Shown here in pieces: positions 11,112-30,659 of a DNA stretch of 64,000 bases (positions are counted from its first letter, which is position 1; each line of letters opens with the position of its first letter). The notes below the pieces were generated by a model. The model worked only from the letters and a program-made list of their open reading frames with translations, was not told the origin of the DNA and ran no database searches. Position numbers and translations under genes: made by a program. Origin of the DNA: Marinifilum sp. D714. Its GTDB lineage: Bacteria > Bacteroidota > Bacteroidia > Bacteroidales > Marinifilaceae. The stretch is taken from positions 1 to 64,000 of the forward strand of contig NZ_JALPNU010000009.1 of assembly GCF_030851345.1 (NCBI RefSeq). The letters are read 5' to 3'.

Positions 11112-11116
11112 TAAAA

Positions 11117-12172
11117 ATGAGGCATCCATTATTACGGAATTATTATGGAATACCAATTTATATTGGTGCGTGGATTTTATTCGTGTTACTTCTCTTTATA
11201 ATTGGGTGGTATTTTGATGGAAATGACTTATATTCCTCCTTTGTAAACTCGTTTAGCTTCTCGTTGCCTTTGTTTATTCTTGGGGCATGTGTTTGGTATG
11301 TAGTTCGTTACATTAGTATGGATGAATCCGGAATTTTGGGTTTTATACTTCATCATTTAACTGCAGGTGCGATTGTAGTTGGGATTTGGGTTTCCGCGGC
11401 ATATCAAATTCGAATTGGCTTTTTTGGTGAAGATCCAGATGGAATTAACTATTTTATACCAATACATTGGCAGGTGTTTTTCGCATTATGTGTATACGAT
11501 TATCTAATATTGGTTTATTATTTGATCATTTATTACAGAAACTTTCAGGATAAAACCATTCAGGAATCGGAACTTAAAAACCTGGTGAAGGAAGCTGAAT
11601 TAAATGCCCTAAAATCACAGATAAATCCACATTTTTTATTTAATAGTTTAAATTCGGTCAGTTCACTTACATTATCAAGTCCGAAATTATCGCGGGAAAT
11701 GGTTGTCAAATTGTCTACTTTCTTAAGATATTCCTTAGGGCAAGATTTAAAAGAGTTAAATAGTTTATCAAATGAGTTGAATAATATTCGTCTGTATCTT
11801 GATATTGAAAAGGTGAGATTTGGTGAGAGATTATTATTAGATTTTAATTCTACCTCTGATTGTGAAAATTTGAAGATACCAAATTTAATCTTACAACCTA
11901 TATATGAAAACGCAATTAAATATGGGGTTCATGAAAGTATACAGCCTGTTACAATACTTACTAATTGTGAAATGATTGATGATGTACTTAAAATTACAAT
12001 TAGCAATAATTTTGATCCGGAATCCATTCCTCCAAGAGGCAATGGTATTGGATTAAGAAATATACAGGAACGATTACGTTTAATTTATGGAAGAACTGAT
12101 TTGATGAAGATTGTTAAAACCGAAAATCAATTTACCGTAAATTTAGAATTCCCACAAAATATACAAGCATGA
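11117..12172 (+). CDS. LytS-type sensor histidine kinase
   Basis: 351 residues. Four hydrophobic segments (about 15-32, 47-66, 76-96, 120-140) precede a His_kinase domain. The phospho-acceptor His172 lies in QINPHFLFNSLNS, and the ATP-binding part has NAIKYG and NGIGLRNIQERL. No extracellular sensor domain is visible, so sensing probably occurs in the membrane, perhaps through the LiaF-like neighbours. The stop overlaps the regulator start by 4 nt (ATGA), giving strong translational coupling. Confidence 0.93.
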   Translation: MRHPLLRNYYGIPIYIGAWILFVLLLFIIGWYFDGNDLYSSFVNSFSFSLPLFILGACVWYVVRYISMDESGILGFILHHLTAGAIVVGIWVSAAYQIRIGFFGEDPDGINYFIPIHWQVFFALCVYDYLILVYYLIIYYRNFQDKTIQESELKNLVKEAELNALKSQINPHFLFNSLNSVSSLTLSSPKLSREMVVKLSTFLRYSLGQDLKELNSLSNELNNIRLYLDIEKVRFGERLLLDFNSTSDCENLKIPNLILQPIYENAIKYGVHESIQPVTILTNCEMIDDVLKITISNNFDPESIPPRGNGIGLRNIQERLRLIYGRTDLMKIVKTENQFTVNLEFPQNIQA

Positions 12173-12915
12173 TAAAAGCAATAATTATAGATGATGAATC
12201 CCTTGCCAGAGATTTGGTGTCTAACTATTTGGATTCTGAAAGCGATATTAAAATTATAGGAGAGTACTCGAATGGTTTTGAGGGATTAAAGGCGATCAAT
12301 GATTTACATCCAGACTTGGTGTTTTTAGATGTGCAAATGCCTAAATTAACTGGATTTGAATTGCTGGAATTACTGGATAGACCTTGCAACATCGTATTTA
12401 CTACAGCTTACAACGAATATGCAATAAAAGCATTTGAACACAATGCCATTGATTACTTGTTGAAACCATTTTCGGAGGATAGGTTTCTTGCTGCTTTGGC
12501 TAAAGCAAAAGAAAGAATTTTGAATTCTACTGACAGTCAAGACCAGATTGAAAAAATTAAATTACATAACGATGAATCAGAAGAATTAATCAATAGAGTT
12601 GTTATCAAATCAAGAAACAAGATCGATGTAATTGCAGTTGATAAAATTAAATATTTTGAAGCTCAAGATGATTATGTAATGATTTATACAGCTGATGGGC
12701 GATACCTAAAGCAAAAAACAATGAAGTATTTTGAATCACATCTGAATTCCAGTGAGTTTTGTAGGATTCATCGATCATATTTGGTTAAAATAGATCAAAT
12801 TTCACAATTGCAACCATATGAGAAAGACAATTGGGTTGTGATCTTAAAATCAGGAGAAAGTTTAAAAGTTAGTCGTAATGGATTCAAACTTCTTAAAAAA
12901 CAATTTGAGATTTAA
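12169..12915 (+). CDS. LytTR response regulator
   Basis: 248 residues. A receiver domain at 1-115 has Asp8, Asp9, the phospho-site Asp54 (VFLDVQMP) and Lys99 (LLKPF). A LytTR DNA-binding domain occupies about 145-248 (KIKYFEAQDDYVMIYT, FCRIHRSYLVKIDQI). It is the cognate output of the kinase it overlaps. The target may be its own operon or the TonB-dependent receptor that follows, but no LytTR site could be picked out by eye. Confidence 0.95.
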   Translation: MIKAIIIDDESLARDLVSNYLDSESDIKIIGEYSNGFEGLKAINDLHPDLVFLDVQMPKLTGFELLELLDRPCNIVFTTAYNEYAIKAFEHNAIDYLLKPFSEDRFLAALAKAKERILNSTDSQDQIEKIKLHNDESEELINRVVIKSRNKIDVIAVDKIKYFEAQDDYVMIYTADGRYLKQKTMKYFESHLNSSEFCRIHRSYLVKIDQISQLQPYEKDNWVVILKSGESLKVSRNGFKLLKKQFEI

Positions 12916-12938
12916 TCTGATGAGGACGAAGAAAAATT

Positions 12939-12968
12939 CGCTATTACATAATTGTAGTAGCGTTTTTT
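12939..12968 (+). terminator. Terminator after the LytTR operon
   Basis: CGCTATTAC and GTAGTAGCG pair (one T-G) around ATAATT and are followed by TTTTTT, 24 nt after the regulator stop codon. Confidence 0.75.
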
Positions 12969-13128
12969 ATTTATACCCACAAAACAGCAACAATAAGTGC
13001 CTTTTGCTGAATTTGTAATTTTATAAAATTTAAGTGAAATGATTTAAATAATAGATAAGAGTATTTGTTTTTATTATAAATATTAAAAATATTTTTAGAT
13101 CACTGTTTTCATTTTCAACATAATCATA

Positions 13129-13136
13129 TATATTTG
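13129..13136 (+). promoter_or_regulatory. -7 promoter box of the TonB-dependent receptor
   Basis: TATATTTG matches TAnnTTTG exactly, 36 nt before the start codon. No clear TTG is present 20 nt upstream, so the -33 element is weak or an activator is needed. Confidence 0.5.
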
Positions 13137-13172
13137 TGTTGCCCAACTACAATTAACTAATCTATAACTACA

Positions 13173-15614
13173 ATGAACCTAAAATTTACTTACGCCAAGA
13201 GTGCGTTCATTATTATTTTGATTTGTGTTTTTACTTCTCATTTGGCTTTTTCACATAACCAGCCAAATGAAAAAAGGAATTCGTCACTAAAGGGAAAAAT
13301 AGTTGAAAACCAATCAAACAAACCATTAGAATTTGCAACCATTTCCATTTACTCTACTGATAGTTCAAAGCTTGTAAGTGGAACAATATCTAATAAGAGA
13401 GGCGATTTTTTACTGGAACAATTAAATGCTGGATCCTATTACTTTAAGGTTGAGTATATGGGGTATTCTACTTATAAAAGTAATCTGTTCGATATTAAGA
13501 ATGGAGAAATTAAGGAACTAACCAATCCTGTGAAGCTTGAGATTAGCACAAAAGCCATTTCAGAAGTTAAGGTTGAAGGAAATAGAGAATTTTCCAAGGT
13601 TGAACTTGGTAAAACGGTTTACAATGTTTCCAAATCTCCAGTTGCCGATGGTGGAACCATAAATGAAGTTTTAAATACTCTTCCGAGATTAAGTGTTGAT
13701 GCTGAAGGAGCTATTCAATTTAGAGGAAGTTCAGATGTTAAGATTTTAATTGATGGTAAAATCAGTGGTCTTCTAGGTATGAATCCTGCAGAAGTTTTAA
13801 ATAGTATGTCTGCTCATGATGTAGATCGTGTTGAGGTAATTAGTACATCTTCAGCCAGATATGATGCCACGGGGGCTGGAGGAATCATCAATATTATCAT
13901 GAAAAAGGACAGGGTAAAAGGCTTTAATGGTAGTGTTGCTGCAACGGTAGGCACCAAGGATAAAAAGTCAGGTGGTTTTAGCGGAAACTATCGTACTGGA
14001 AAAGTGAACTTCTTTGGTTCCTATAATTATAAAGATGATTGGGCAGGGCGAGATTACAATGTGCAAAGAGAAATTAAGAAGGAAGATGTACATACTCTTC
14101 TATTGGAAAATGCAGATGTTGATTTTGGGAATCGATATCATATTGGAAAACTGGGTTTGGATTATTTGATCAATAATAATAACACCCTAACTTTTTCAGC
14201 CAAGTACCAAGACGTTCTTCAAAATTGGAATGGAAACTATGATTATACTCGTACAAATGTTATAAGTAGTGCAATGCCAATTGTTGATTATAGAACCAGT
14301 GCGGTTGATTTAGATATGAATTCTTGGGTTTACAACGCTTCATATATCCACAAATTTGCCAAGAAAGGGGAAACACTTTCGATAGACCTGGCTTATACTG
14401 ATAATGCTGCAGATAATTCTGGTAATTATGCAGAGTATCTTAACATCCAATCTTTTGGGCAGGATCTATTATTTGGATCAGATGTGAACGCGACTAGCTT
14501 GTATTCAGATTATTACAAAACAGCAAGAAAAGAGGCTGTTGCTCAGGTAGATTATGTGCTTCCAGTAGGGGATAAAGGTAAGTTTGAAACAGGTTACCTA
14601 TATCGTAACAATGAAATAGATTACAAGGTTGGATCAGCTACTGATGATTTTAATTACGAAGAAAACATTCATGGTTTGTATGCCATGTATTCTGGTTCGA
14701 AAGGAAAGTTTGCCTACGAATTGGGTCTTCGTGCAGAATATTCAGATATAAATACCAATAAAGAATTTAAGGATGATTATTTGGATCTTTTTCCGAGTGT
14801 TCACTTGTCGTATCAGATTTCGGATAAGAAGCAGTGGCAATTGGCTTATAGTAGAATGATCTATCGACCTAATTCAGGAATGTTAAATCCTTTCCAAAAT
14901 CTTCGAGATCCTGAAAATCAAAGATATGGTTCGCAAAATATTGAAGCATATTACAATCACAACATTGAAATGTCGATGGCTTTCGATAGAGAAAAGGCCA
15001 GTTACAAAACAACTTTATATGTGAATTATTATAAGAATCTAATAAATCAATATCGCTTTATTGATGATGAAACCAATGAATCTATTGTTCAATTTGGTAA
15101 TTTCGATTCAAAATTTTTCTCTGTATTAGAGTTTGAAGGATCAACCAAGCTAAATAAGTGGTGGAGTTTGAATGGATATGTGGCAGGTATTTATGAGGAA
15201 ACAAAGCCAGGAGAAGGATATAAATTTGGTACACGAGATATGTGGGAGGTTACTGGAAAAGTAACATCAGTTATGAACTTTAAAAAGTGGTTTAAACTTC
15301 AAGCAAGTTTCCGTTATCAATCTGAAATATTGGTTGCGCAAGGAAAATACCAAAACCTGTACTATGTAGATCTAGGCTTAAGTAGAAAAGTCTTAAAAGG
15401 AAGAGGACGTTTGTCTTTTACGGCTAATGACATATTTAATACTTTCAGATTTAAGGTTCATACTTCAGATCCTGAGTGCTATAATAAGGAAATTAAATAC
15501 AGAGAAACTCAAATTGCCAAATTAAGTTTTAGATACTTTTTTGGTAAGCGATATAGAATCATGAGAGCTAAACCGAAAAAATCAGGAATGCGACATTCCG
15601 AAAATGACATTTAA
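13173..15614 (+). CDS. Outer-membrane TonB-dependent receptor with N-terminal CarboxypepD-like domain
   Basis: 813 residues. Signal peptide about 1-27; a carboxypeptidase-regulatory-like beta-sandwich domain (about 38-120, LKGKIVENQSNKPLEFATI); a plug domain (about 150-250, with ARYDATGAGGIINIIMKK); then a 22-strand barrel typical of the outer membrane beta-barrel (OMP_b-brl_3) family. No SusD-like gene follows, so this is not a glycan-uptake SusCD pair. The substrate is unknown; metal, peptide or small-molecule uptake or signalling are all possible. It has its own promoter and terminator. Confidence 0.9.
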   Translation: MNLKFTYAKSAFIIILICVFTSHLAFSHNQPNEKRNSSLKGKIVENQSNKPLEFATISIYSTDSSKLVSGTISNKRGDFLLEQLNAGSYYFKVEYMGYSTYKSNLFDIKNGEIKELTNPVKLEISTKAISEVKVEGNREFSKVELGKTVYNVSKSPVADGGTINEVLNTLPRLSVDAEGAIQFRGSSDVKILIDGKISGLLGMNPAEVLNSMSAHDVDRVEVISTSSARYDATGAGGIINIIMKKDRVKGFNGSVAATVGTKDKKSGGFSGNYRTGKVNFFGSYNYKDDWAGRDYNVQREIKKEDVHTLLLENADVDFGNRYHIGKLGLDYLINNNNTLTFSAKYQDVLQNWNGNYDYTRTNVISSAMPIVDYRTSAVDLDMNSWVYNASYIHKFAKKGETLSIDLAYTDNAADNSGNYAEYLNIQSFGQDLLFGSDVNATSLYSDYYKTARKEAVAQVDYVLPVGDKGKFETGYLYRNNEIDYKVGSATDDFNYEENIHGLYAMYSGSKGKFAYELGLRAEYSDINTNKEFKDDYLDLFPSVHLSYQISDKKQWQLAYSRMIYRPNSGMLNPFQNLRDPENQRYGSQNIEAYYNHNIEMSMAFDREKASYKTTLYVNYYKNLINQYRFIDDETNESIVQFGNFDSKFFSVLEFEGSTKLNKWWSLNGYVAGIYEETKPGEGYKFGTRDMWEVTGKVTSVMNFKKWFKLQASFRYQSEILVAQGKYQNLYYVDLGLSRKVLKGRGRLSFTANDIFNTFRFKVHTSDPECYNKEIKYRETQIAKLSFRYFFGKRYRIMRAKPKKSGMRHSENDI

Positions 15615-15633
15615 TACGATTACAAATCAATAT

Positions 15634-15663
15634 AAAGCTTCATCATAAGGTGAAGCTTTTTTT
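15634..15663 (+). terminator. Terminator after the TonB-dependent receptor
   Basis: AAAGCTTCA and TGAAGCTTT form a perfect stem around TCATAAGG, followed by a T run. Confidence 0.85.
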
Positions 15664-15775: not shown

Positions 15776-18700
15776 ATGAGCTTGAAGTTATTGGATATTA
15801 AGAAGCTGAAAAATGCTAGAAGTATTGACAAGAACAATAAACCCAAATCAAGAAGCAGAAGAAATTTTCTGAAAGGTTTGGGATTTGGATTTCTTGCTTT
15901 TCAACCTTCTTTAAAGGCATTGGGAAAGGCTGTTGGGAATGATATACAATACAGAAAGAATGGAAAATCGATTACTTTATACTCTCAGGAAGGAAATTCT
16001 TGGAATATCAATTTGAATTCTTTTGATGGTAATCCAAAATTGTATTTTCGAAAGAAACAGGAAGATTATTATTTAATTCTTCGTAATGCTTTTTATCCAG
16101 GGACCAGTTTGCCAATGGATTTTAAAGCCATTCTCTACAATGATTTATCGTGGAGAATAAAAATCACTTTTACAAAACTTAATATATCGGAAGATCTAAG
16201 TCTGACGGATTGGATCAATGGTAATACTCAGCTGAATTCATTTGTTTATCTTCATCAAAGAATAGAATTGAATAATCGGTATTCTTTGGATATTGAAGAT
16301 CATTATCATTTTATCATTGATAAGTTTTGGAAAATAACTTTACGTGGAAAAGATCTGGCAAATTACAAACTCAATGATTTTTCTGGTACTGCTGAACGAA
16401 TTTGTTTCAGTTTTCCTGTTAAGGAAGATCTTAGTTATTTTAACTCCAATTTTGAACCAAAACTGAAATTGAGTATCACAACTCAAAATGTAGAACCATT
16501 TCTTTCAAATTGGAAAATTATGAATGGTTCAGAATTGAATAGTTGTAGGGATGTACAGCATCATGTTCAAATATTAAAATCTGTGAGGCTTTCAGAAAGA
16601 TCTTCATCAGTGATATTGCTTGATGAAGAGGATGTTAAGGAGGCAAATGGCTTTTTATTTCATAAGAAAGTAAAAAATGATCTAGAAGAAACTCTTAAAC
16701 TTTATCGTTCACAACTTGCAATTGAGTTCAATCATGATTTAGAAAATTTAGTTTTCATTGCCAGTATTGCAAATCATGGAATTTGGACAAAATCCTCCGA
16801 GGCTTCATACCAACTAATTAATTCAAATGAAAAAGCTGCATTTGAAATGCATGGTACAAATGGTAGAATAAATTCTGTAAACGGATTGGCACATGTAGCT
16901 GCTACCAAATACCTCTTACCTGATGCCATTAGTTTGGCAGTTGAATATCCGGAGAAGCCAGTCATTGAAATAGAGTATCAGGATCAGAAATTGCAATCGA
17001 AAAAGAAGATTGTAATTGATTCCCGTTTGGGAAAGATTAAAATTAAAGAGAAGGAAATCATACGATTGAGTGTTCTTCGACCTGAGGATATGCTTTTTCT
17101 TCAGTTTGAGTTTTACAATTTCAAATACATAAAAAAGGATCAACAAAGCTTTTTAGAAATTAACAATACGAAGAAGCCAGCAACTATGGTGGTGGTTTTT
17201 CCTCCTCAACATACATTGGAGCAAGCCTTTTGGGAGAACAATTCATTGCCGGGAGGAGAGGGAAATGAAAATGTAATATTACCTGCAAAATATATACGTA
17301 GTGGTAAAAGTAGATTGGTATATTCAGTTCCTTCCAACTTTAAGGGGATGCCAATTATTATGGAGGAATTGTTAAACTGGTCACGTTTTAAGTTAAGGGT
17401 AAATTATCGTGCAAGGGTATTGGAGCCAGTTAAACTAGTAATTAATAAATTTCAGAATCTTGGTTCTTTTATTGATAAGAAAAGTACTAGCAAACCAAAA
17501 ACGATTAGCAAACAGAGCTTAAACATTGCGAAATATTCAAAGAATCGTTTAAGTAGCAGATCTCTTTATAGTAAAGATCAGTTATCAAAGAATTTACCTG
17601 CTGAAGTAAGTGGGCAGCTGTATGCAAAGATTAACTATGCAGCATTGAAAGCCAATTTGTTGGAGATGAGAAAACCAAACCTGTTGGAAACCTCTATTGA
17701 GGCGCCAACCAGACTATTCATTTCGCCCAATCAATTGGCTGGTTTTGCTCATCAGCAGAGGATTCATTTAAAGGATCATAAAGAAATCCCAAAAGGAAAA
17801 ATTCAGAATCTACAATTCAATAATCCATTAATAAGCAATAAAGGGGAGTTGTCGGAACTGTGGCATTCACGCATGGGTGTGCGCTTAAAAAATGGGGAGA
17901 TTGATGAAGATGGAATGGAAGGATTTAGAAGCATTCGTGCACTTTGGGCCAGGGATGCATTCAAAAAATTAACTCCTAAGCCACAAAGAAATAAGCCGTT
18001 CCGAACAGCCTTAGATGGTAGGGATCGACACAATATCGTTCATCAGACTTCGAATTTTACCATCAAGTCTTACACGCCAAGAGCTGTGAAGGCCAAGCAA
18101 TTCATGATGTCATCCTTAGGCGCATGGATTGATTTCAACGCAAACTTTAATTACCCGGATTTTCATGCACAGCCTGATTTGGAGCTTTTGGAATGGGAAC
18201 ATCTTTCCACTTTAGGGAGAGATCACTATGTAAAAGTGGTGGAGGCAGGATTTCTGTTTCCATTTGGGCATACAGCAGCACTGGTGAAAATTACAGAGAG
18301 AAAACCAGATAAAGCAACAAGAGCAGCTGTGAATCGACAAAGAATGTACATTGTCATTCTTGAGCCTGTTGTGTACTACCAAATGAGAGATCAGCAGAAT
18401 GGATTTATTCCTTTTCCTTTCCAAACCGTTGAGTTGCCAGCTACACGCACACCAGATTTGGATGCTCCTGTTGATTTGGTGAATTTGGGTGGTGATTATA
18501 ACTTCTTGATTCGTAGCGGAGGTACGGATTTAATTTTTGATTTGCTATTGGTTGATCAGGAAGGGCGAGAGCAGAAAATAAAATTGCCATTGATATTTAT
18601 AGGCAAGTCGGCTGCTTATAATGAAACCAAATCAGAGCAATTGGTAGATGTATACAACGCTGAGATGAATCGATTCAAGGCCGATTTCAACTTGCAAAAG

Positions 18701-20437
18701 GTGGCCTATTCTCCTTCATTGATAGAAGATGATACAACATTCGAGACAAGAGGAATCGATTTTGGAGCTTTGTCTCTTGAAAATAAAGCAGCTACAGTGC
18801 TGAAGTTTCATCCTAAGGTGAAGACTGCTTCGGTTAAGGTAAAGGCAATCGAAGAATTAACCGGAAATCCTGACCCTGTGAATATTGAGTTGCAAGATGA
18901 TGAAAATGCAGCCAAAGTATTTGCCAAGGTTCTGGACAATTTAAAAGCTGATTTTTCAAGCGGATCAGATAAGTCCGGTGGATTTATGTGTCCCAATACA
19001 CAGGTTACCTCCCTTTCGAAGTTGAAAGGACCTTTGGGAGGAGCAGTGGATAAGTTACAAAAACTGGAATTTGATCCGGCAGAGTTTTTTGCCTCTTCGG
19101 GTGATATGCCTGTTGCCAAGCTGTTTGGTGTGGTGTCCATTTTCGATTTACTATTGGGCAATTTGAATTTTGGGGATCAAGGGAATCAACAGTCTGAAGC
19201 CTTAAGTGGAATCAGTCAGCAAATGGAATCCTTAAAGGAGGACATCCTGGAACAGCAAGCCATTTTGGAGACAGCTGCTGAGGATGCTCAGGCAGCGATT
19301 GAACAGGAGATTCAGAATTTGAGAAATCAATTGGAGTCGAAAGTCAATGAATTGGAACAGCAATTGACCAGTCAGATTCCTCGAATCCCAAATTTTAATG
19401 CATACAAAACCGATAAGGCATTTGTGGTAGAATATCGTTGGATACCGGAAATGGAAGCCAGTAAGTCTTTATTTGGAGGATTTCTAACGGTAAATGTTCA
19501 AAAACCAAGTGAAGCATTGCAAGTGTTAAGTAAGCTAAGTAGGCCTTTCGATACTTCACAAAAAACACAGTTTGGTGTAAATGCATCTTTCACTGATTTT
19601 TCTGTTGAGATCAAAGAATTGATTCGGGTTAGTTTTAAATCTCTGAAGTTTGGAGGAGGATCGGGTAAGAAAGCTGATGTGAAAGTGGAAATGGCGGAAG
19701 ACGATTCAATTCTCTTCCTGGGGCCATTGAGTTTTGTAAATCAACTGCAGAATTTGATTCCTTCCAATGGATTTGCTGATGGACCATATATGAAATTATC
19801 ACCTGCAGGAGTTAAAGCTGGCTTCGATTTGGCTATACCGAGTGTAGAGGTCGGTGTTTGTACCATTGCAAATATGACACTGGGAGCTGGAGTTCATCTG
19901 CCATTTACAGGAGCTCCACTTACCCTTTCCTTTAATTTCTGTAAGCGTGAATCACCATTCCTATTAACGGTTTCTGCATTTGGTGGTGGAGGTTATTTCC
20001 TGATGAAAACCAGCGTAAAAGGATTTGTTGGAATGGAGGCGGCTTTCGAGTTTGGTGCAGCCTTATCCATGAATTTTGGAGTAGCAAGTGGAGGTGTATC
20101 TGTAATGGGTGGTTTCTATTTCAGTATGGAAATCGTGGATGATCATACCGAAACCATACTAACAGGTTACATCCGTTTTAACGGATATTTATCGATACTT
20201 GGAATCATAAGTCTTTCCTTGGAAATTTATTTGGCTTTTGTCGCCATGTTCCAGAATGGAAAGGTTGAAAAATTATATGGTGAAGCCATTGTAAAAGTGA
20301 AGGTTGAAGTGTTATTCTTCAGCAAAACTGTGACTTTAACAGCTCGAAGAGAATTAAAGGGAGCCGATGCAGACCCAACCTTCCAAATGATTATGGAAGA
20401 AAACGATTGGCTGGAATATTGCCAAGCTTACGCTTAA
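15776..20437 (+). CDS. Giant Tat-targeted protein of unknown function (1553 aa)
   Basis: No known domain is recognised. Residues 27-33 read SRRNFLK, a perfect twin-arginine motif followed by the hydrophobic GLGFGFLAF, so folded export by Tat is likely. Residues 55-1090 look beta-rich. A segment near 1100 reads DPAEFFASSGDMP then VAKLFGVVSIFDLLL. Residues about 1138-1205 form a coiled coil with many Gln and Glu. The last 250 residues alternate Gly and hydrophobics (VSVMGGFYFSMEI at 1441) and end in W1545-LEYCQAYA. From memory, similar C-termini occur in large uncharacterised proteins of Actinobacteria; this is not checked. GGAGGG lies only 2 nt before the ATG, an odd spacing. The partner gene follows 17 nt later. 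Confidence 0.85.
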   Translation: MSLKLLDIKKLKNARSIDKNNKPKSRSRRNFLKGLGFGFLAFQPSLKALGKAVGNDIQYRKNGKSITLYSQEGNSWNINLNSFDGNPKLYFRKKQEDYYLILRNAFYPGTSLPMDFKAILYNDLSWRIKITFTKLNISEDLSLTDWINGNTQLNSFVYLHQRIELNNRYSLDIEDHYHFIIDKFWKITLRGKDLANYKLNDFSGTAERICFSFPVKEDLSYFNSNFEPKLKLSITTQNVEPFLSNWKIMNGSELNSCRDVQHHVQILKSVRLSERSSSVILLDEEDVKEANGFLFHKKVKNDLEETLKLYRSQLAIEFNHDLENLVFIASIANHGIWTKSSEASYQLINSNEKAAFEMHGTNGRINSVNGLAHVAATKYLLPDAISLAVEYPEKPVIEIEYQDQKLQSKKKIVIDSRLGKIKIKEKEIIRLSVLRPEDMLFLQFEFYNFKYIKKDQQSFLEINNTKKPATMVVVFPPQHTLEQAFWENNSLPGGEGNENVILPAKYIRSGKSRLVYSVPSNFKGMPIIMEELLNWSRFKLRVNYRARVLEPVKLVINKFQNLGSFIDKKSTSKPKTISKQSLNIAKYSKNRLSSRSLYSKDQLSKNLPAEVSGQLYAKINYAALKANLLEMRKPNLLETSIEAPTRLFISPNQLAGFAHQQRIHLKDHKEIPKGKIQNLQFNNPLISNKGELSELWHSRMGVRLKNGEIDEDGMEGFRSIRALWARDAFKKLTPKPQRNKPFRTALDGRDRHNIVHQTSNFTIKSYTPRAVKAKQFMMSSLGAWIDFNANFNYPDFHAQPDLELLEWEHLSTLGRDHYVKVVEAGFLFPFGHTAALVKITERKPDKATRAAVNRQRMYIVILEPVVYYQMRDQQNGFIPFPFQTVELPATRTPDLDAPVDLVNLGGDYNFLIRSGGTDLIFDLLLVDQEGREQKIKLPLIFIGKSAAYNETKSEQLVDVYNAEMNRFKADFNLQKVAYSPSLIEDDTTFETRGIDFGALSLENKAATVLKFHPKVKTASVKVKAIEELTGNPDPVNIELQDDENAAKVFAKVLDNLKADFSSGSDKSGGFMCPNTQVTSLSKLKGPLGGAVDKLQKLEFDPAEFFASSGDMPVAKLFGVVSIFDLLLGNLNFGDQGNQQSEALSGISQQMESLKEDILEQQAILETAAEDAQAAIEQEIQNLRNQLESKVNELEQQLTSQIPRIPNFNAYKTDKAFVVEYRWIPEMEASKSLFGGFLTVNVQKPSEALQVLSKLSRPFDTSQKTQFGVNASFTDFSVEIKELIRVSFKSLKFGGGSGKKADVKVEMAEDDSILFLGPLSFVNQLQNLIPSNGFADGPYMKLSPAGVKAGFDLAIPSVEVGVCTIANMTLGAGVHLPFTGAPLTLSFNFCKRESPFLLTVSAFGGGGYFLMKTSVKGFVGMEAAFEFGAALSMNFGVASGGVSVMGGFYFSMEIVDDHTETILTGYIRFNGYLSILGIISLSLEIYLAFVAMFQNGKVEKLYGEAIVKVKVEVLFFSKTVTLTARRELKGADADPTFQMIMEENDWLEYCQAYA

Positions 20438-20454
20438 ACAATTAACAATTAGCA

Positions 20455-23400
20455 ATGAAACAAAAAATCATATTCACCTGTTTGCCACATCGAATTGATG
20501 AACAAGAAAAATTGCGATTTTCGGTGCAGGTAAGTTTGCGCCTCGAAAATGCAAGTTCAAGCACATTAGCTAGTTTTCCTGATATGAAGAATTGGCCTGC
20601 AAAGTTGAAGAACTCCAGCTTTAAGCTAAGATTGAAAAATGGCAATGAATATGATATAGATCTGAATTCAAGTGTGCTTGATGAAGATCTCTGGGGGAAG
20701 TTAATGCACAAGGATATTCGTGTAGATGGTTTTCAGCAAGAAGATTTAACGTCCAGTAGAATTCATTCCTATCCAATCAAACATGTGCAGAATTTTGTAT
20801 TGGATACCTACAAAAGGCTTGGTGTTCAAAATCCGGATCGATTGATTGAACCCAAAGACTTGAGCGACCCGAAAAGTTTGGGACAGATTTCGAAATTTAA
20901 AAAGCGAGATACACCAAAACCACAGGAAAGCAACACAACGGTTGCTGGTAGAAGGGTATTTAAGGAATCAGATTTTTTAGATGTGGATGAATCTGCTTCC
21001 AGACGATTGGATGAACTCAGAAGAAAGAATGGATTCGTTCCTTTCCAGCAACAGGCCAATCCTAAAATGGATTTCGCACAGTTTAGAGATTTTCATAAAA
21101 CGGATCGCCCAACAAGATATGAGCCTTTGGCTAAGATCAAGAAACCTGAATTCGAGTTTCATGATATTATGGCGGTGGTCAGTACTTATCCGCAAATTCA
21201 AAGAAAATTGGGGGTTGTGCTTGACTTTAGTATGGATATTCCCAATGGATTTCCTGCAAATCATTCCATGCGATTGATCATTCAGGATATTGATTTTACA
21301 ACGAATACGGAAGTTTCGGTTCCTTTAACAGCTTATCGCTACACCGAAAAAGGATTTTATGCAAAATCAAAGGAGGGATCGGATATCAATTTGGGATTTG
21401 TGAAAATCAATACCGATAAGTTTACAGCTTTTCAGATTGATACCGATGGGGTTGCCTTGAAGGTAAACCAGATGGTGGATAATAAGATTCAGGAAGAGGT
21501 GAAGTTGAAAATTGTGGAGTTGGATCTGGGTAAAAGTGAACGATTCAAAAATGGAGTAATCCCAGCAGATGAACCTGAAAAAGAAGGACTGCCAAGTTTA
21601 CGATCGGCAGGAATTGGAATTGCACGAAATGGAATGGGACAACACTTAAATGCCAGGTTTATTAAAGCAAAACAACTGCAAGCCAAGATCATCGATCCGT
21701 CGAAAATGGATGACAGTTTAAAACTCATCCTTTCTGATGAAAGACTATATGCAGAAGATTTGGTACAAGGCTACAGAATGGATGTTGCTTATTCAACAGA
21801 ACCAGAGAAGTGGTATTCATTGCACATGAGAAAAGAATCTTATTCCTACTTCGATTCCAGTAATGTTGAGGAGTTTATTGATGATATTAATGCAGATGAG
21901 GGATTTATACAAACTGCAGCTGCCGAGGATACTGAGAATGCCAGTGAGCTTTTTGTTGGTGAGAACATGATTCGCTGGGAAGGATGGAGTTTATCGGTTC
22001 CCAAACCTGGTTTTGCCATTAATGAAGCTGAGGATGAAAATGTAGATCCATCAAAACGCGTGGACTATGTGAATACATCAAAGAATGTGGAGGCAAAGAA
22101 ATATGAGTTTGATTCCACCAGGGAGTTTCGACTACATACCAAAACAGAAACGGTTAAGGGAACATTACCAAGATTGCGTTTTGGAAAGGATTATATGCTA
22201 CGTGTGAGAACCGTGGACATGGCTGGTAATAGTGTGCCGCTCGATTCTCAACCTGAAAAAGTAAGTGAGGCTGTTATCCGTGGTTTTAGATATTATAGGT
22301 ATGATGCTTTGATGAATCCGGTATTGCTTTTGGGATCGGAATTGAAAGATGGTGAGGCTTTGGAAGAATTGGTAGTTCGAAGCAATTACAATATGAACAC
22401 CGAGGAGTTCCAGGGGCGTTATGGAAATGTGGATTCAAGTGAAAATACAAAGGCAACAAGACATTTCTTACCGCCAAGAAATTCTCAATTGATTGCAGAA
22501 CAACATGCCAGGTTCGATAAGGCTTTTGGGAACAATCCTGAACTTGCCAAGGCATTGTATGAATTGATCAGTTCGAAAGAAGTACAGTTGGAAAAAGGAG
22601 AAAATGGTAAGGAAAAGGTGTACAAAGGAGATCAGGTGGATCTGGTTTATTTGCCTGATCCTGCAGCTGCAGGTTTAGCTCTATTTCTGGCTGATGGATA
22701 TGATGATTCGCATTCACAAAATTTTGAGCCAAGACTGTTCAGCTTCTTCGGCAATGATGAATTGAGTCCGAATAATACCAATATCAACCTTTCAGATGAG
22801 GAGTGGTATAAAGCCAAATCCTTGCGCATTCAGTTGGTAGAAGGAAGTACTGCGTTTAATTGGAATGCTGCTGCTCGGGTTTTAACGGTAGCTCTGCCAA
22901 AGGGTGAAAGAATCAAACTGAGATTTTCTACTTTCTGGAATGAGAAGGATCTGGAGGAGTTTTCCGGGATGTGGCAATTGCTGCAGGAAGACAACCCGGG
23001 GAATATTACAAAGCTTAAAGAACTGGCAAAAACAGGAAGACACTGGATGATTAGTCCGGCACGGGAAATTGAATTGACCCATGCAGTTCAGCAGCCTGTA
23101 GATGCTCCTCAAATCGAAATCATTAATCCGGATAAGAATTACGACGATACGCATGCATGGCTGCATACAAGGTTTTCAGTTCATGGATTTTCAACTCATA
23201 AGATAGAATACAAAGCACGTTGGAAGGACAGAAGAGATGATCCAAGAACGGTTGAGCCCGATTGGGTATACCATTCGGATAATGTGGAAGAAATCGATAT
23301 TCAATATCACGATAAAACTGTGGATAAAGGAAATCTTCCAGAGAAGAAAGATCTTTCCAAACAAATTGCCATTCAGGGACAAGTCAATCCGGCTAAAAAA

Positions 23401-24618
23401 CAACTAAAAGTGAGTCTGGCAAGCGAATTCAGTGGTGCATTACAGCACAAGTTTGGTGATACCAAGCACCGATATGTGGATTATCATCCTGAAGCCACAA
23501 CACGATATGCTGAGCATTTCGACAAGCTAATCAAATCGGAAGGACTGGAAATTACCAGGGATGGTGAGTGGTACGAAAAGGTGAACATTTTGAGTTCGGA
23601 TAGACCGAAAATACCATTTGTTGATTATGTGATCCCAACATTCGAGTGGAGAAAGACCAAAACAGCTATGGCTATGCGTCAGCATCGTTTGGGTGGCGGT
23701 TTGCGTGTGTACCTAAAACGTCCTTGGTTTTCGACTGGCGAGGATGAGATGTTGGCTGTAGTGTTGCCGGGATCAGATCCATCGAAGATATCACAGACCA
23801 TTGCTGCATTAGGAACAGCTGGGTTCAACACCATGTTTACCCATTGGGCACAGGATCCAATTCGTCCATCGAAACCTGGAAGTATGAACTATCCTGGCAT
23901 CAATGATTTTAGACACAATCCAAGTGTTGACAAGGGATTAATATACCCCGGAAAGGAGAATGTAAAGGTAAATGCAATTACTTATCCTGTAGAGTTTGAC
24001 AAGGAACGAAAGTTATGGTATGCCGATTTTGCCATCAATCATGGCAAGATGTATTTCCCATTCGTTAAATTGGCTTTGGCCAGATATCAACCACATTCGG
24101 TTCGTAAAGCTGGGCGTGATGTTTGTTTGTCTTCCGTTGTGATGGCCGATTACATTCAGTTGGTACCTGAGCGAATTGCAACGCTTACCTTTAAAAAGGA
24201 CAATATGAATTCTCGATTTACCCTCCAGATTGAAGGAGTGATATCCAATGCATTGGATAGAAATGGAAATACAGGGAATTATTTGGATATTAGTTTCCTC
24301 GATCCAGAATTGGTTCAGCCTGTATACGGAAGTGTAAGTGATGGTAGAAATGAGGAGAGTTTGGAAGATGAGGGAGTAAGAATTCCCATATCAGGCAGTG
24401 TGGTAAAAAACAATTACTATACAATTGTTCGTGAGTTTAAGTTGAGCAGAAGATATAAAGACCAGCCTTTGCAGGTAATTGTGCAAGAATTTGAAGGATC
24501 GCCGCCAGCAAGAGGAAATATAAGTAGTGTTACAAGTGGTGTAAATGAAGAAAACCAGCCGAGGTTGGTTTATGCTGATGTGTTTAAAATTAATGCGCCA
24601 AATCTGGATAAGAAATAA
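20455..24618 (+). CDS. Giant partner protein of unknown function (1387 aa)
   Basis: No signal peptide, membrane segment or known domain is recognised. The start has a recognisable block: LRFSVQVSLRLE (about 20-31), then FPDMKNWP, then DEDLWGKLM. Late landmarks are LGGGLRVYLKRPWFSTGEDE (1079-1098) and MYFPFVKLALARYQPHS from 1199. These blocks resemble, from memory, a family of large uncharacterised proteins in distant phyla. Many short Trp/Tyr-containing strands suggest a large beta-rich scaffold. It begins 17 nt after its neighbour, which bears the Tat signal, and may be exported as its passenger; this is a guess. Base composition matches the surrounding genes. Confidence 0.85.
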   Translation: MKQKIIFTCLPHRIDEQEKLRFSVQVSLRLENASSSTLASFPDMKNWPAKLKNSSFKLRLKNGNEYDIDLNSSVLDEDLWGKLMHKDIRVDGFQQEDLTSSRIHSYPIKHVQNFVLDTYKRLGVQNPDRLIEPKDLSDPKSLGQISKFKKRDTPKPQESNTTVAGRRVFKESDFLDVDESASRRLDELRRKNGFVPFQQQANPKMDFAQFRDFHKTDRPTRYEPLAKIKKPEFEFHDIMAVVSTYPQIQRKLGVVLDFSMDIPNGFPANHSMRLIIQDIDFTTNTEVSVPLTAYRYTEKGFYAKSKEGSDINLGFVKINTDKFTAFQIDTDGVALKVNQMVDNKIQEEVKLKIVELDLGKSERFKNGVIPADEPEKEGLPSLRSAGIGIARNGMGQHLNARFIKAKQLQAKIIDPSKMDDSLKLILSDERLYAEDLVQGYRMDVAYSTEPEKWYSLHMRKESYSYFDSSNVEEFIDDINADEGFIQTAAAEDTENASELFVGENMIRWEGWSLSVPKPGFAINEAEDENVDPSKRVDYVNTSKNVEAKKYEFDSTREFRLHTKTETVKGTLPRLRFGKDYMLRVRTVDMAGNSVPLDSQPEKVSEAVIRGFRYYRYDALMNPVLLLGSELKDGEALEELVVRSNYNMNTEEFQGRYGNVDSSENTKATRHFLPPRNSQLIAEQHARFDKAFGNNPELAKALYELISSKEVQLEKGENGKEKVYKGDQVDLVYLPDPAAAGLALFLADGYDDSHSQNFEPRLFSFFGNDELSPNNTNINLSDEEWYKAKSLRIQLVEGSTAFNWNAAARVLTVALPKGERIKLRFSTFWNEKDLEEFSGMWQLLQEDNPGNITKLKELAKTGRHWMISPAREIELTHAVQQPVDAPQIEIINPDKNYDDTHAWLHTRFSVHGFSTHKIEYKARWKDRRDDPRTVEPDWVYHSDNVEEIDIQYHDKTVDKGNLPEKKDLSKQIAIQGQVNPAKKQLKVSLASEFSGALQHKFGDTKHRYVDYHPEATTRYAEHFDKLIKSEGLEITRDGEWYEKVNILSSDRPKIPFVDYVIPTFEWRKTKTAMAMRQHRLGGGLRVYLKRPWFSTGEDEMLAVVLPGSDPSKISQTIAALGTAGFNTMFTHWAQDPIRPSKPGSMNYPGINDFRHNPSVDKGLIYPGKENVKVNAITYPVEFDKERKLWYADFAINHGKMYFPFVKLALARYQPHSVRKAGRDVCLSSVVMADYIQLVPERIATLTFKKDNMNSRFTLQIEGVISNALDRNGNTGNYLDISFLDPELVQPVYGSVSDGRNEESLEDEGVRIPISGSVVKNNYYTIVREFKLSRRYKDQPLQVIVQEFEGSPPARGNISSVTSGVNEENQPRLVYADVFKINAPNLDKK

Positions 24619-24627
24619 TAGAATATA

Positions 24628-25335
24628 ATGACCAAAGAAGAAGTTTTCAAAAAGTTGGAATACTACGGAAATGAAGGAACCAAAAATGTACTCATAAAAC
24701 ATGGAGCCCGTGAGCCGTTTTATGGTGTGAAAGTACAGGATTTGAAGAAAATTGTGAAGAAGATTAGAAAGGATTATCAACTTTCTTTGGAATTGTATGA
24801 TTCAGGGAATTCAGATGCGATGTATTTGGCTGGGTTAATTGCAGATGAAAAGATGATGACTAAAGCAGATCTTCAGAAATGGGTGAAAGGTGCATATTGG
24901 TACATGATTAGTGAATACACGGTGCCTTGGATTGCAGCAGAGTCTCAATTTGGTTTTGAATTGGCATTGGAGTGGATTGAATCCAAGGAAGAAAACATAG
25001 CAGCTGCCGGTTGGTCAACTCTTTCGAGCCTGGTTGCTTTTAAGACAGATGAAGAATTGGATTTAGAATTGCTAAAGAGACTTTTATTACGTGTTGAAAA
25101 GGATATTCATACTTCATTGAATAGGGTAAAATATACCATGAATGGTTTCGTGATCTCGCTTGGTGCTTATGTGATAGAATTAACCGATTTGTCCATGGAG
25201 ATTGCAAAGAAGATTGGTAAAGTAGATGTGTACATGGGAGAAACATCATGCAAAGTACCTTTTGCACCAGAATATTTACAAAAAATAATAGATAAAGGAA
25301 GATTAGGAAAAAAGAAAAGAACAGCTCGATGCTAA
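24628..25335 (+). CDS. AlkD-like HEAT-repeat protein, probably lacking the catalytic Asp
   Basis: 235 residues, all-helical. The YGVKVQDLKKIVKKI start and the repeated helix pairs fit the DNA alkylation repair (AlkD, PF08713) superfamily. The catalytic-type AlkD paralogue next door has SWWDSVDSLA, but the matching stretch here reads AYWYMISEYTVPW, with no aspartate. It may bind DNA or protein without glycosylase action. The C-terminus is basic (GRLGKKKRTARC). It follows the 1387-aa gene by 9 nt, so it is likely in the same transcript. Confidence 0.8.
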   Translation: MTKEEVFKKLEYYGNEGTKNVLIKHGAREPFYGVKVQDLKKIVKKIRKDYQLSLELYDSGNSDAMYLAGLIADEKMMTKADLQKWVKGAYWYMISEYTVPWIAAESQFGFELALEWIESKEENIAAAGWSTLSSLVAFKTDEELDLELLKRLLLRVEKDIHTSLNRVKYTMNGFVISLGAYVIELTDLSMEIAKKIGKVDVYMGETSCKVPFAPEYLQKIIDKGRLGKKKRTARC

Positions 25336-25375
25336 TAGAAAAGTATAGTTCAGCTTTTGCAAAATCAATATCATT

Positions 25376-26035
25376 ATGCAAACAAAAACCATTAAAATAG
25401 TAGAACAATTTAGAACGAACTCCGATGAGGAAAATGCCATAAAAATGTCGGCATATATGAAATATCGTTTCCCTTTTCTGGGATTGCCTAAACCTCAAAG
25501 GGATGAATTGAGTAAAGACTTTCTGAGGAAAGTTACCAAGGGAAAAATGATCGATTGGAATTTGGTTAATTATCTTTGGGAATTGCCTGAGAGAGAGTTT
25601 CAATACCTGGCGCTTGAATACCTTGGAAAGCTTAAAAAACAACTCAAAAAATCAGAGATCTCAAAATTAGAGCAATTGATTGTTACGAAATCTTGGTGGG
25701 ATTCCGTGGATTCCTTGGCTCCATTGGTAGGTGTATTGTGTAAAAAATATCCTGAATTAAAGACTGAGGTTATAAGTAATTGGATCATTAGCTCAAATAT
25801 TTGGTTGAAACGTGTATCAATTATTTTCCAATTAAAATTTAAAGATGATGTTGATACAGAATTACTATCAAAGGCAATCATTGCAAATACCCTGACTAAA
25901 GAGTTTTTTGTGAACAAAGCCATAGGTTGGGCATTGCGACAGTATTCAAAATTTAATCCTGATTGGGTCAAAGAATTTATTTCCACCTATCCTTTGTCAC
26001 CGCTTAGTGTAAGGGAAGGCAGTAAATATTTGTAA
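25376..26035 (+). CDS. AlkD-type DNA alkylation repair protein
   Basis: 219 residues of HEAT-like helices. AlkD excises bulky or cationic alkylated bases (3-methyladenine, 7-methylguanine) without flipping the base. The cleft residues described for Bacillus cereus AlkD appear to be kept: Trp108 and Asp112 in SWWDSVDSLA, Arg146 in IWLKRVSII, and Trp185 in KAIGWALRQY. The start MQTKTIKIVEQF and the typical KYRFPFLGLPKPQR block also fit. It is 40 nt downstream of the degenerate paralogue. Confidence 0.9.
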   Translation: MQTKTIKIVEQFRTNSDEENAIKMSAYMKYRFPFLGLPKPQRDELSKDFLRKVTKGKMIDWNLVNYLWELPEREFQYLALEYLGKLKKQLKKSEISKLEQLIVTKSWWDSVDSLAPLVGVLCKKYPELKTEVISNWIISSNIWLKRVSIIFQLKFKDDVDTELLSKAIIANTLTKEFFVNKAIGWALRQYSKFNPDWVKEFISTYPLSPLSVREGSKYL

Positions 26036-28043: not shown

Positions 28044-30659
28044 ATGAGAAGTGTATTGGTATTTCTGTTTTTCTTTTTGCTGTTTGGTTGCTATTCCCAG
28101 GATGTTCCACTTGTTAATGAACAACATCCAAGAATAGAATTGAGTCAGGAGCGCTTTGACTGGTTAAAAGCGAATATAACAAGTGGTGAGTGCCAGGAAA
28201 CTTACCAGCGATTTAAAAGTGCCTACGATAGAAATTGGGTGACCAGTTCAAGAACTTATATGGTTGGTTCGGATTCTACTCAATGGAATTTTGAGTTTGG
28301 TTCGAGCGATGCATTTCAAATGTCACGAATGACTGCCTTTCTACTGAAAATGGGAACGGATGGATTGGCTTTGAAGCGTTGCGAATTCATCATTTCGAGA
28401 TATGTAGAATACCTGAATTCCTTAAATTTCGATAATTACTCTGGAGACACCAAAGAGAATCTGCTAAGGAACAATTGCAATTACGGAGCCATTCTTTTAG
28501 ATTGGACCTACAATGATGTTCCTCAGTTGAAGAGGCAACAGCTTTCAAGAGCTTTGTTCCGGGTGTTGGAGTACTTTATGGACAATTATGTTTTGACTCC
28601 TTCGGGCAATAGCTATGTAACCAGCCATAACATTTACAATTGCGGAATTACTATGCATGCGGCTCTTGCACTTCATGGGGCTGATGGCTTATCATCTGGC
28701 CAAATGTCGGATGTTAATTCATGGTACGCTACTTTGGTGGATAAGTGGGAAAATGGAATTCTCCCTGCATTTGCTCACTTTCGTGATGATGATGGTGGTT
28801 GGAATTGGGGAGCAGCTTATTCCATGTTCGGTTTGCCACGTCAGTACCAATTTTTTGATGATATGAAAATCGCAACAGGAACCGATTACTATCAGGAGCA
28901 AGCCTGGATTAGGGAATCTATTAACCAATACTGGTATTTTTATCGTCCGGATAATTATACCATTCATTTGGGCGATGCTGTAATTGATATCGATCAGGCC
29001 AACCGGGTAATGTATCGCCATGCAGCTGAGTTTGGCGATGAAAGAAGTCAGTACTTGGTTCAAAAATATGGAGCAACCCAATACCTGAACAATTCGAACC
29101 TGGTATTTCAAAAACTTTTATTTAAAGATTTTGAAGCTGCTACGGTTTCGCATCCCCAACCACCTTTAGATTGGTGGGCCGACAAAACCGGATTGGCTGT
29201 CAGCCGAACTTCATGGGACGAGGATGCCACCATGATTTGGTACTACTGTGCTCCAGCTAAACGTGCCGATCACGAACACAGAGACAACAACCATTTTGTA
29301 ATTATAAAAGACAAACCCCAAATTTTGGATGCAGGTCATTACGACTCTTACGCAACGAATCATTATAACAATTACTATTCGCGCACCATTGCACACAATT
29401 CCATTTGTGTATTCGATGGATCAGAATCTTACCGTGCATTTGGGCGATCCGTTTCGAATGATGGCGGCCAAATATGGACCGATCGATTGGAGAATGTAGG
29501 TGAGGTTAATGATAGAGATCACAGAAGAGGAGAGTGGCTCAAGTTTGCAGCTGACGATGAGTATGCTTATTATATCAGCGATGCCGCAGATTCCTATGCA
29601 TCCGATAAATTGGATCGGTTCGAACGCAGGTTATTGTATCACAAGCCTGATCGGGTAATTGTGTTGGATCATTTGCATTTGCGAAATGTATCTTCGCAAG
29701 AACGAAAAGCCAAATACATCAATCATTTTGCCAATCGCCCCGATATAAACGGTCAGGTGGTGAATACTGCGGTTGCCAATAATATTATCACCTACAATGG
29801 TAGAAATTATAAGGCATCACACGGAAATGGAAATGTAGCCATCCGCACTTTACTGCCGGAATCTACCACCACAACCTTAATTGGAGGGAGTGCATATGAA
29901 TATTGGGTAAATGGGACGAATTATCCGCCCAATAACAGTCCTGATTTTGAATCGGCACATCCGGGAACGTGGAGAATTGAAGTTGAGCCAACGCAAGTAA
30001 GCGACGATTTGGTTTATCTTCATACCATTAAAATTGGCGATAATCAAAACCCATCGAATGCGGGTGGTGAACTGTTTGAAAACGAAAGCACCATTGGAGT
30101 GGATTGGGAGAATCATTTGTACCTGTTCCATTCTAAAGGCGATACATTAAATTCTACCTACTCGGTAAATCCGCTTGACGGAAACCGAACCATAAAGATT
30201 TTTGCTTTGGATATGCAGGCCAATACTTCTTATGGTGTGTTTTTAAACGATGATTTGGCCAGAACAGGAGACTCTAACGAGGATGGTATTTTTGAGATTA
30301 CGGTTGATTTGGCTGAAGGAGTTTACAAGCTGGTAGTTCGTGACACCATTGCTGGAGATCCTAATCCCGGTACCGATCCTGAGCCAGATCCTACTCCGGA
30401 ACCAGGCGATGAGGCAGAAGGAGAGGTGAAGGTATACCCAAATCCAAGTGATGGTATTTTTACCGTATTGATTGAACACGATGAGGTGAATGAGTTTCAC
30501 TTGAGTGCATTCGATTCTGCAGGGAGGAAGATCATGGAATATTTAAATTCGGGCAATCGTGCTGATTTGAACCTGAATGGACTTTCTTCTGGTGTCTACT
30601 ATATACTCATACAATATCTCGACAAACAAGTGAAGCGAAAGATTGTGCTTGTTGATTAA
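28044..30659 (+). CDS. Secreted heparinase II/III-like polysaccharide lyase with T9SS sorting domain
   Basis: 871 residues. A signal peptide or lipobox-like start (1 to about 18) leads to an alpha/alpha toroid (about 30-350) and then a beta-sandwich with HEHRDNNHFVI (His410 to Ile420), as in heparinase II/III family lyases. A Pro/Asp/Glu linker (about 770-793) joins a type IX secretion sorting domain (about 795-871, VYPNPSDGIFTV to QVKRKIVLVD). It probably degrades an acidic polysaccharide (alginate or glycosaminoglycan-like) outside the cell; the exact family and substrate are not resolved. It is monocistronic and not inside a glycan-utilisation locus. Confidence 0.85.
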   Translation: MRSVLVFLFFFLLFGCYSQDVPLVNEQHPRIELSQERFDWLKANITSGECQETYQRFKSAYDRNWVTSSRTYMVGSDSTQWNFEFGSSDAFQMSRMTAFLLKMGTDGLALKRCEFIISRYVEYLNSLNFDNYSGDTKENLLRNNCNYGAILLDWTYNDVPQLKRQQLSRALFRVLEYFMDNYVLTPSGNSYVTSHNIYNCGITMHAALALHGADGLSSGQMSDVNSWYATLVDKWENGILPAFAHFRDDDGGWNWGAAYSMFGLPRQYQFFDDMKIATGTDYYQEQAWIRESINQYWYFYRPDNYTIHLGDAVIDIDQANRVMYRHAAEFGDERSQYLVQKYGATQYLNNSNLVFQKLLFKDFEAATVSHPQPPLDWWADKTGLAVSRTSWDEDATMIWYYCAPAKRADHEHRDNNHFVIIKDKPQILDAGHYDSYATNHYNNYYSRTIAHNSICVFDGSESYRAFGRSVSNDGGQIWTDRLENVGEVNDRDHRRGEWLKFAADDEYAYYISDAADSYASDKLDRFERRLLYHKPDRVIVLDHLHLRNVSSQERKAKYINHFANRPDINGQVVNTAVANNIITYNGRNYKASHGNGNVAIRTLLPESTTTTLIGGSAYEYWVNGTNYPPNNSPDFESAHPGTWRIEVEPTQVSDDLVYLHTIKIGDNQNPSNAGGELFENESTIGVDWENHLYLFHSKGDTLNSTYSVNPLDGNRTIKIFALDMQANTSYGVFLNDDLARTGDSNEDGIFEITVDLAEGVYKLVVRDTIAGDPNPGTDPEPDPTPEPGDEAEGEVKVYPNPSDGIFTVLIEHDEVNEFHLSAFDSAGRKIMEYLNSGNRADLNLNGLSSGVYYILIQYLDKQVKRKIVLVD

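What the first reader, a model, noticed from the sequence alone, without database searches (positions are those of the whole stretch)
15776..24618. Two-giant-protein locus, Tat-targeted partner plus unsignalled partner: candidate undescribed system
Seen: 1553- and 1387-aa proteins encoded 17 nt apart. The first has a perfect Tat motif (SRRNFLK), a coiled coil and a Gly-rich C-terminus ending WLEYCQAYA; the second lacks any signal. Neither shows a domain I can name. From memory, the blocks LGGGLRVYLKRPWF and FPDMKNWP (protein 2) and VSVMGGFYF (protein 1) recall uncharacterised proteins of distant phyla, which would make this a conserved two-part system. Inference: protein 2 may be exported folded with protein 1, since Tat can carry signal-less passengers.
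Basis: partly seen in the sequence, partly recalled or inferred. Interest (0 to 1): 0.85.

Follow-up and report, generated by a model that had tools for sequence, protein, structure and literature searches.

The report
Undescribed mobile two-giant-protein gene pair
Two very large neighbouring bacterial genes, whose proteins match no family in the libraries searched, turn out to be a strictly linked pair that recurs in at least three bacterial phyla, usually with one partner marked for export in folded form and the other never marked, so they look like an undescribed two-part machine of unknown job.

Summary
P1 (1553 aa, perfect Tat motif) and P2 (1387 aa, no signal) lie 17 nt apart; neither matches any family in Pfam, NCBIfam, PHROGs, PADLOC or PDB. 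Profile searches of 395 Bacteroidota genomes find P2 in 18 and P1 in the same 18 plus one cut off by a contig end; P1 lies directly upstream of P2 wherever visible. The pair also occurs on Streptomyces, Cupriavidus, Diaphorobacter, Rhizobiaceae and Ruegeria replicons (12 of 15 inspected loci; the rest are P2 relics). P1 and P2 trees mirror each other (r = 0.90). Presence is patchy (about 5% of genomes). So 'conserved two-part system' is well supported. Co-export of P2 with P1 is plausible, not shown: P2 never carries a signal and two rhizobial P2 genes are followed by tatA; but P1 lacks a Tat signal in Chlorobia, beta-proteobacteria, some Rhizobium and Streptomyces, and the 334-kDa pair is twice the usual Tat limit. 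P1 ends in strongly amphipathic beta strands after a helical segment of very variable length. Function is unknown; an envelope complex that binds something hydrophobic is the leading guess.

The parts
15776..20437 (+). P1 gene, 1553 aa, 175.3 kDa
   Evidence: homologues
15854..15874 (+). twin-arginine motif SRRNFLK of P1 (residues 27-33)
   Evidence: sequence; hydrophobic core follows; motif kept in all intact primary Bacteroidota P1 outside Chlorobia
15923..17065 (+). P1 N-terminal region (residues 50-430), an optional module absent from beta-proteobacterial, some Rhizobium and Streptomyces P1
17066..19165 (+). P1 core (residues 431-1130) with invariant R435, D438, Q478, E482, E642, R815, R842 and the GRDH...LFPFGH block
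19166..19390 (+). P1 helical/coiled-coil spacer (about 1131-1205); the corresponding mid segment varies from 108 to 1135 aa in homologues
19703..20365 (+). P1 C-terminal beta domain (residues 1310-1530): at least nine strands with one hydrophobic face
   Evidence: alignment A4; amphipathicity; strand positions from a low-confidence model
20408..20434 (+). conserved P1 C-terminal tail WLEYCQAYA (family W..YC.AFA)
20455..24618 (+). P2 gene, 1387 aa, 158.8 kDa, no export signal
   Evidence: homologues
20455..20844 (+). P2 N-terminal domain (residues 1-130) with FPDMKNWP block
21130..23304 (+). P2 middle region (residues 226-950), includes a fibronectin-III-like stretch near 571-600 (LPRLRFG..Y.LRVRTVD.AGNS)
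   Evidence: fn3 E=0.064 in one member only
23422..24240 (+). P2 conserved C-terminal block (residues 990-1262) with LGGGLRVYLKRPWF at 23689-23730
   Evidence: alignment A3
15634..15659 (+). terminator-like hairpin that separates P1-P2 from the upstream outer-membrane protein gene
   Evidence: pattern match only

Best explanation
P1 and P2 are the two obligate parts of one undescribed, horizontally spread system. Shown: strict linkage in fixed order, co-inheritance, purifying selection, no own signal on P2, a Tat signal on P1 in most lineages including this one. Inferred: P1 and P2 fold together in the cytoplasm; where P1 has a Tat signal the folded complex is moved by Tat into the periplasm, P2 riding along without a signal; there it works as a large envelope complex, P1's helical segment setting reach and its C-terminal one-sided hydrophobic beta sheet holding a hydrophobic ligand, lipid or membrane surface, in some lineages beside an outer-membrane-barrel-like neighbour. 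Lineages without the Tat signal would use the same pair inside the cell.
For: Independent profile searches find P2 in 18 and P1 in 19 of 395 genomes, the same 18 plus one P1 cut off by a contig end; adjacency and order kept in all intact loci. A second, very divergent pair in a Marinifilum relative is also adjacent. Tree distances correlate at r=0.897, best of 2000 permutations 0.35; 16 of 26 splits shared. Same pair in Actinomycetota and alpha/beta-Pseudomonadota. Tat motif in all intact primary Bacteroidota P1 outside Chlorobia and in the giant alpha-proteobacterial P1; TatC in the host and in all 17 tested relatives. tatA follows P2 at once in S. meliloti LMB1 (Pfam TatA 2.4e-9) and in Ensifer adhaerens. 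Barrel-like and other secreted proteins sit beside the pair in eight or more loci. Amphipathic long strands in P1's C-terminus across the family.
Against: No contact between P1 and P2 was predicted or measured; both models are poor (pLDDT 39). The Tat signal is absent in Chlorobia, beta-proteobacteria, some Rhizobium and Streptomyces, so export is not part of the common core. 334 kDa exceeds known Tat cargo (up to 150 kDa, PMC6708511; PaoABC 135 kDa 'one of the largest', PMC4273604). tatA is next to P2 in only two loci, and the Ensifer P2 is 5'-truncated with no P1. Barrel-protein relatives also occur in many genomes without P1-P2. The hydrophobic-ligand step rests on the strand pattern alone.
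Confidence: 0.42

Rival explanations
1. The pair is basically a cytoplasmic complex; the Tat signal, with or without the N-terminal region, is a removable address tag acquired or lost by lineage. P2 always stays with P1, wherever that is.
For: Signal-less P1 in Chlorobia, Cupriavidus, Diaphorobacter, some Rhizobium and Streptomyces and the second Marinifilum copy, all with P2 adjacent; core domains conserved with or without a signal; at least 3 changes of state on the tree.
Against: The Tat signal is kept by all intact primary Bacteroidota copies outside Chlorobia although these proteins share only about 30% identity; exported neighbours and tatA linkage in Tat-bearing groups.
Confidence: 0.22
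2. P2 is a dedicated cytoplasmic folding or quality-control partner for P1 that stays behind when P1 crosses by Tat, like a giant analogue of redox-enzyme maturation chaperones.
For: P2 lacks any signal in the homologues; P1 alone (175 kDa) is already large for Tat; Tat needs folded cargo (PMC6708511).
Against: P2 is as large and as conserved as P1, unlike the small known Tat chaperones (own knowledge); it persists where P1 has no Tat signal.
Confidence: 0.18
3. A mobile conflict or adhesion module (large toxin-like or surface protein pair) spread by plasmids, P1-P2 acting on other cells.
For: Patchy presence (18 of 395; 9 of 119; 5 of 91 genomes), presence on conjugative plasmids, great size, variable helical segment, weak Ig/adhesin-like look of the P2 model (not significant).
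Against: No toxin or effector domain, no variable tip, no consistent small neighbour gene that could be an immunity gene; no match to defence models; the most conserved parts are the C-terminal regions.
Confidence: 0.1
4. Two unrelated large genes that merely stay linked in an operon without physical or functional partnership.
For: No contact demonstrated; profile comparison shows no shared domains.
Against: No intact orphan of either gene among 395 genomes; co-occurrence across phyla and in a divergent second copy.
Confidence: 0.05

Closest known systems
Tat hitch-hiker complexes (HybO/HybC, PaoABC aldehyde oxidoreductase)
   Same: One subunit with a twin-arginine signal, partner without any signal, adjacent genes
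   Different: No cofactor-enzyme family or cofactor-binding domain was detected; more than twice the mass of PaoABC; the Tat signal is not conserved across the whole family; co-export not shown
Specialised TatA paralogues (Campylobacter jejuni TatA2, PMC4148689)
   Same: A second TatA affecting particular Tat substrates
   Different: Here a tatA gene lies directly behind P2 on two rhizobial replicons; no functional data
AsmA/TamB-type bridge-like lipid transfer proteins with an outer-membrane partner (TAM)
   Same: Large envelope protein with one-sided hydrophobic beta strands; barrel-like partner gene nearby in some lineages
   Different: No sequence match to these Pfam families; Tat signal instead of a plain N-terminal membrane anchor; a second giant partner P2; the likeness rests on strand pattern only

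Membership tests
Tat hitch-hiker complex | One subunit bears a twin-arginine signal with hydrophobic core | tested here: met
   SRRNFLK at residues 27-33
Tat hitch-hiker complex | Partner subunit has no export signal of its own | tested here: met
   No signal in the window's P2 nor at the aligned N-termini of its homologues
Tat hitch-hiker complex | Genes adjacent and co-inherited | tested here: met
Tat hitch-hiker complex | Size within the known range of Tat cargo | tested here: not met
   334 kDa against up to 150 kDa (PMC6708511)
Tat hitch-hiker complex | Subunits form a complex and partner export depends on the signal-bearing subunit | not testable with these tools
   needs fractionation and deletion strains
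Tat hitch-hiker complex | Signal conserved throughout the family | tested here: not met
   absent in Chlorobia, beta-proteobacteria, some Rhizobium and Streptomyces
AsmA/TamB-like lipid bridge | Match to AsmA/TamB family models | tested here: not met
   no such Pfam match in P1 or in the 29 members scanned over the C-terminal domain
AsmA/TamB-like lipid bridge | Long strands with one hydrophobic face | tested here: met
   (strand positions from a low-confidence model)
AsmA/TamB-like lipid bridge | Groove fold | tested here: inconclusive
   model pLDDT 38.8, no significant fold match
Known anti-phage defence system | Match to defence models | tested here: not met
   only coiled-coil-region matches
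Phage or phage-tail-derived system | Match to phage families or phage records | tested here: not met

The most novel reading that the evidence does not exclude
A previously undescribed class of giant, horizontally spread two-protein machine in which the Tat system, in some species with its own linked TatA, carries a folded complex of 330-570 kDa across the cytoplasmic membrane, far larger than any known Tat cargo, to act in the envelope.
Probability: 0.2. Interest if true: 0.88.

Novelty: categorically new. Interest (0 to 1): 0.64.

Why it matters
A strictly linked pair of 1000-3300-aa proteins present in at least three phyla, with no family name in the libraries searched, is a real gap in annotation, and the linkage lets the pair be tested as a unit. 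If P2 really rides with P1, it would raise the known size limit of Tat transport at least two-fold and give a natural test case (signal-bearing against signal-less versions; with and without a linked TatA).

Tried and rejected
Known family for P1 or P2: rejected. Shared domain or duplication between P1 and P2: none. Phage origin: no hit in phage records or phage families, none in IMG/VR for six strict peptide patterns. Structure route: two AlphaFold jobs gave pLDDT 39 from 13-15 rows (only rows from the loci that the tool admits were used); Foldseek gave nothing at E<=0.001, so the weak likeness to outer-membrane barrels (P1) and Ig-like folds (P2) is not used as evidence of fold. TatC presence as a test of the Tat idea: uninformative, present everywhere. 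Barrel-like neighbour ('FSG') as an obligate third part: rejected, absent from Marinifilum and Chlorobia, and relatives are widespread without P1-P2. One P2 matched a peptidoglycan-binding domain (L056), an insert in a single member. Literature searches gave no paper on the pair. Other phyla could not be surveyed genome-wide, only through plasmid records.

Full report
What is there. The window is from a Marinifilum (Bacteroidota) genome, contig G000:C105; close relatives are M. flexuosum, M. breve and Marinifilum sp. D737. P1 (15776-20437, 1553 aa, 175 kDa) and P2 (20455-24618, 1387 aa, 159 kDa) are intact, 17 nt apart, and under strong purifying selection. A terminator-like hairpin at 15634-15659 separates them from the upstream outer-membrane beta-barrel gene; downstream, two AlkD-like DNA-alkylation-repair genes follow, the first after only 9 nt. 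P1 carries S-R-R-N-F-L-K at residues 27-33; P2 has no hydrophobic N-terminus.

No known family. hmmscan against Pfam, NCBIfam, PHROGs and PADLOC gave only coiled-coil-type matches in P1 at about 1130-1205 and nothing for P2. phmmer and profile searches of the PDB gave nothing. Scanning 28 P2 and 29 P1 family members one by one gave only isolated weak hits. This covers only the libraries at hand; full public protein databases and AlphaFold DB could not be searched.

The pair is real and obligate. P2 as a single query, and later as a 32-row profile, finds the same 18 of 395 Bacteroidota-phylum genomes. The P1 C-terminal profile finds those 18 plus G231, where P1 runs into the contig end. In all 18, P1 lies directly upstream of P2 where the contig allows it to be seen. 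Presence is patchy: 9 of 119 genomes in the class of G101, 5 of 91 in the class of G048, 6 of 39 close relatives. Two genomes of the G101 class carry two P2 copies, and a Marinifilum relative carries a second, very divergent pair, again adjacent and without a Tat signal. On plasmid and megaplasmid records the pair is found in Streptomyces, Cupriavidus metallidurans, Diaphorobacter, Rhizobium, Sinorhizobium, Agrobacterium and Ruegeria; in 12 of 15 inspected loci P1 precedes P2, and the other three (Ensifer, Rhizobium Pop5, Bradyrhizobium) are P2 pieces without P1. Distances in P1 and P2 trees correlate at 0.897 (best of 2000 permutations 0.35), with 16 of 26 splits shared; a few supported deep conflicts remain, which may be long-branch effects.

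Anatomy. P1 has an optional Tat signal, an optional N-terminal region (about 400 aa), a core with invariant polar residues, a helical mid segment of 108 to 1135 aa, and a C-terminal beta domain ending in W..YC.AFA. In that domain the predicted strands have one hydrophobic and one polar face over the whole family (difference 2.6-4.5 Kyte-Doolittle units). P2 has a conserved N-terminal domain, a middle region with a fibronectin-III-like stretch, and the conserved block with GGGLRVYLxRPWFSSGEGE. Invariant D443, D735, H876, E1098 and D1134 of P2 may be catalytic or structural; this is not resolved.

Export. All 21 readable primary Bacteroidota P1 N-termini outside Chlorobia, and the five alpha-proteobacterial P1 of the Tat-bearing group, carry RR plus a hydrophobic core; Chlorobia, Cupriavidus, Diaphorobacter, Rhizobium TP23 and two Streptomyces do not (the Rhizobium WYJ-E13 start is ambiguous). 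At least three changes of state are needed on the tree. In S. meliloti LMB1 plasmid pC a divergent tatA (55 aa, Pfam 2.4e-9) follows P2, and a tatA 69% identical over 45 aa follows the P2 remnant of Ensifer adhaerens. In eight or more loci of four families the pair sits beside a barrel-like secreted protein and/or a 'PPPNQL' secreted protein, the latter with RCC1 repeats in some; relatives of the barrel protein are widespread without the pair, so it is a frequent neighbour, not a required part. Known Tat cargo goes up to about 150 kDa (PMC6708511) and PaoABC (135 kDa) was called one of the largest (PMC4273604); P1+P2 would be 334 kDa here and 523 kDa in S. meliloti. Co-export of P2 is therefore possible but needs an experiment.

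Mechanism, with status. Shown: obligate linkage, co-inheritance, Tat signal on P1 in most lineages, no signal on P2. Inferred (moderate): the two form one complex. Inferred (weaker): P2 is carried out with P1 here. Speculative: P1's C-terminal sheet holds a hydrophobic ligand or membrane, with the helical segment as a spacer. Structure models were too poor to help (pLDDT 39).

Novelty. I mark the pair as categorically new because no named family or system matched either protein or the arrangement; the proposed mode of export, if true, would be an extreme variant of Tat hitch-hiking. A fold-level relation to something known cannot be excluded, and a database outside those searched may already hold an unnamed family for either protein.

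Noticed in passing
L058:15244-15411 and L060:15506-15643: A divergent tatA gene directly follows P2 in S. meliloti LMB1 plasmid pC and follows a P2 remnant on an Ensifer adhaerens replicon; the TatA proteins are 69% identical over 45 aa.
   Followed up: partly
L034, L035, L038, L039, L045-L048: P1-P2 are flanked by a secreted outer-membrane-barrel-like protein and a secreted 'PPPNQL' protein, the latter with RCC1 repeats in several genomes.
   Followed up: partly
L079:2725-11996: A Marinifilum relative carries a second, very divergent P1-P2 pair without a Tat signal.
   Followed up: partly
window 10383-15614: Upstream of P1: LiaF-like membrane protein, histidine kinase, LytTR regulator and a beta-barrel outer-membrane protein, conserved in Marinifilum and Labilibaculum; possibly an envelope-stress regulatory set.
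   Followed up: partly
window 24628-26035: Two different AlkD-like DNA-alkylation-repair genes in tandem directly after P2, conserved in Marinifilum and Labilibaculum.
   Followed up: no
window 28044-30659: Heparinase II/III-like protein with a type IX secretion C-terminal sorting domain.
   Followed up: no
L056:14070-16694: One Streptomyces P2 homologue carries an inserted putative peptidoglycan-binding domain (Pfam E=9e-5).
   Followed up: partly
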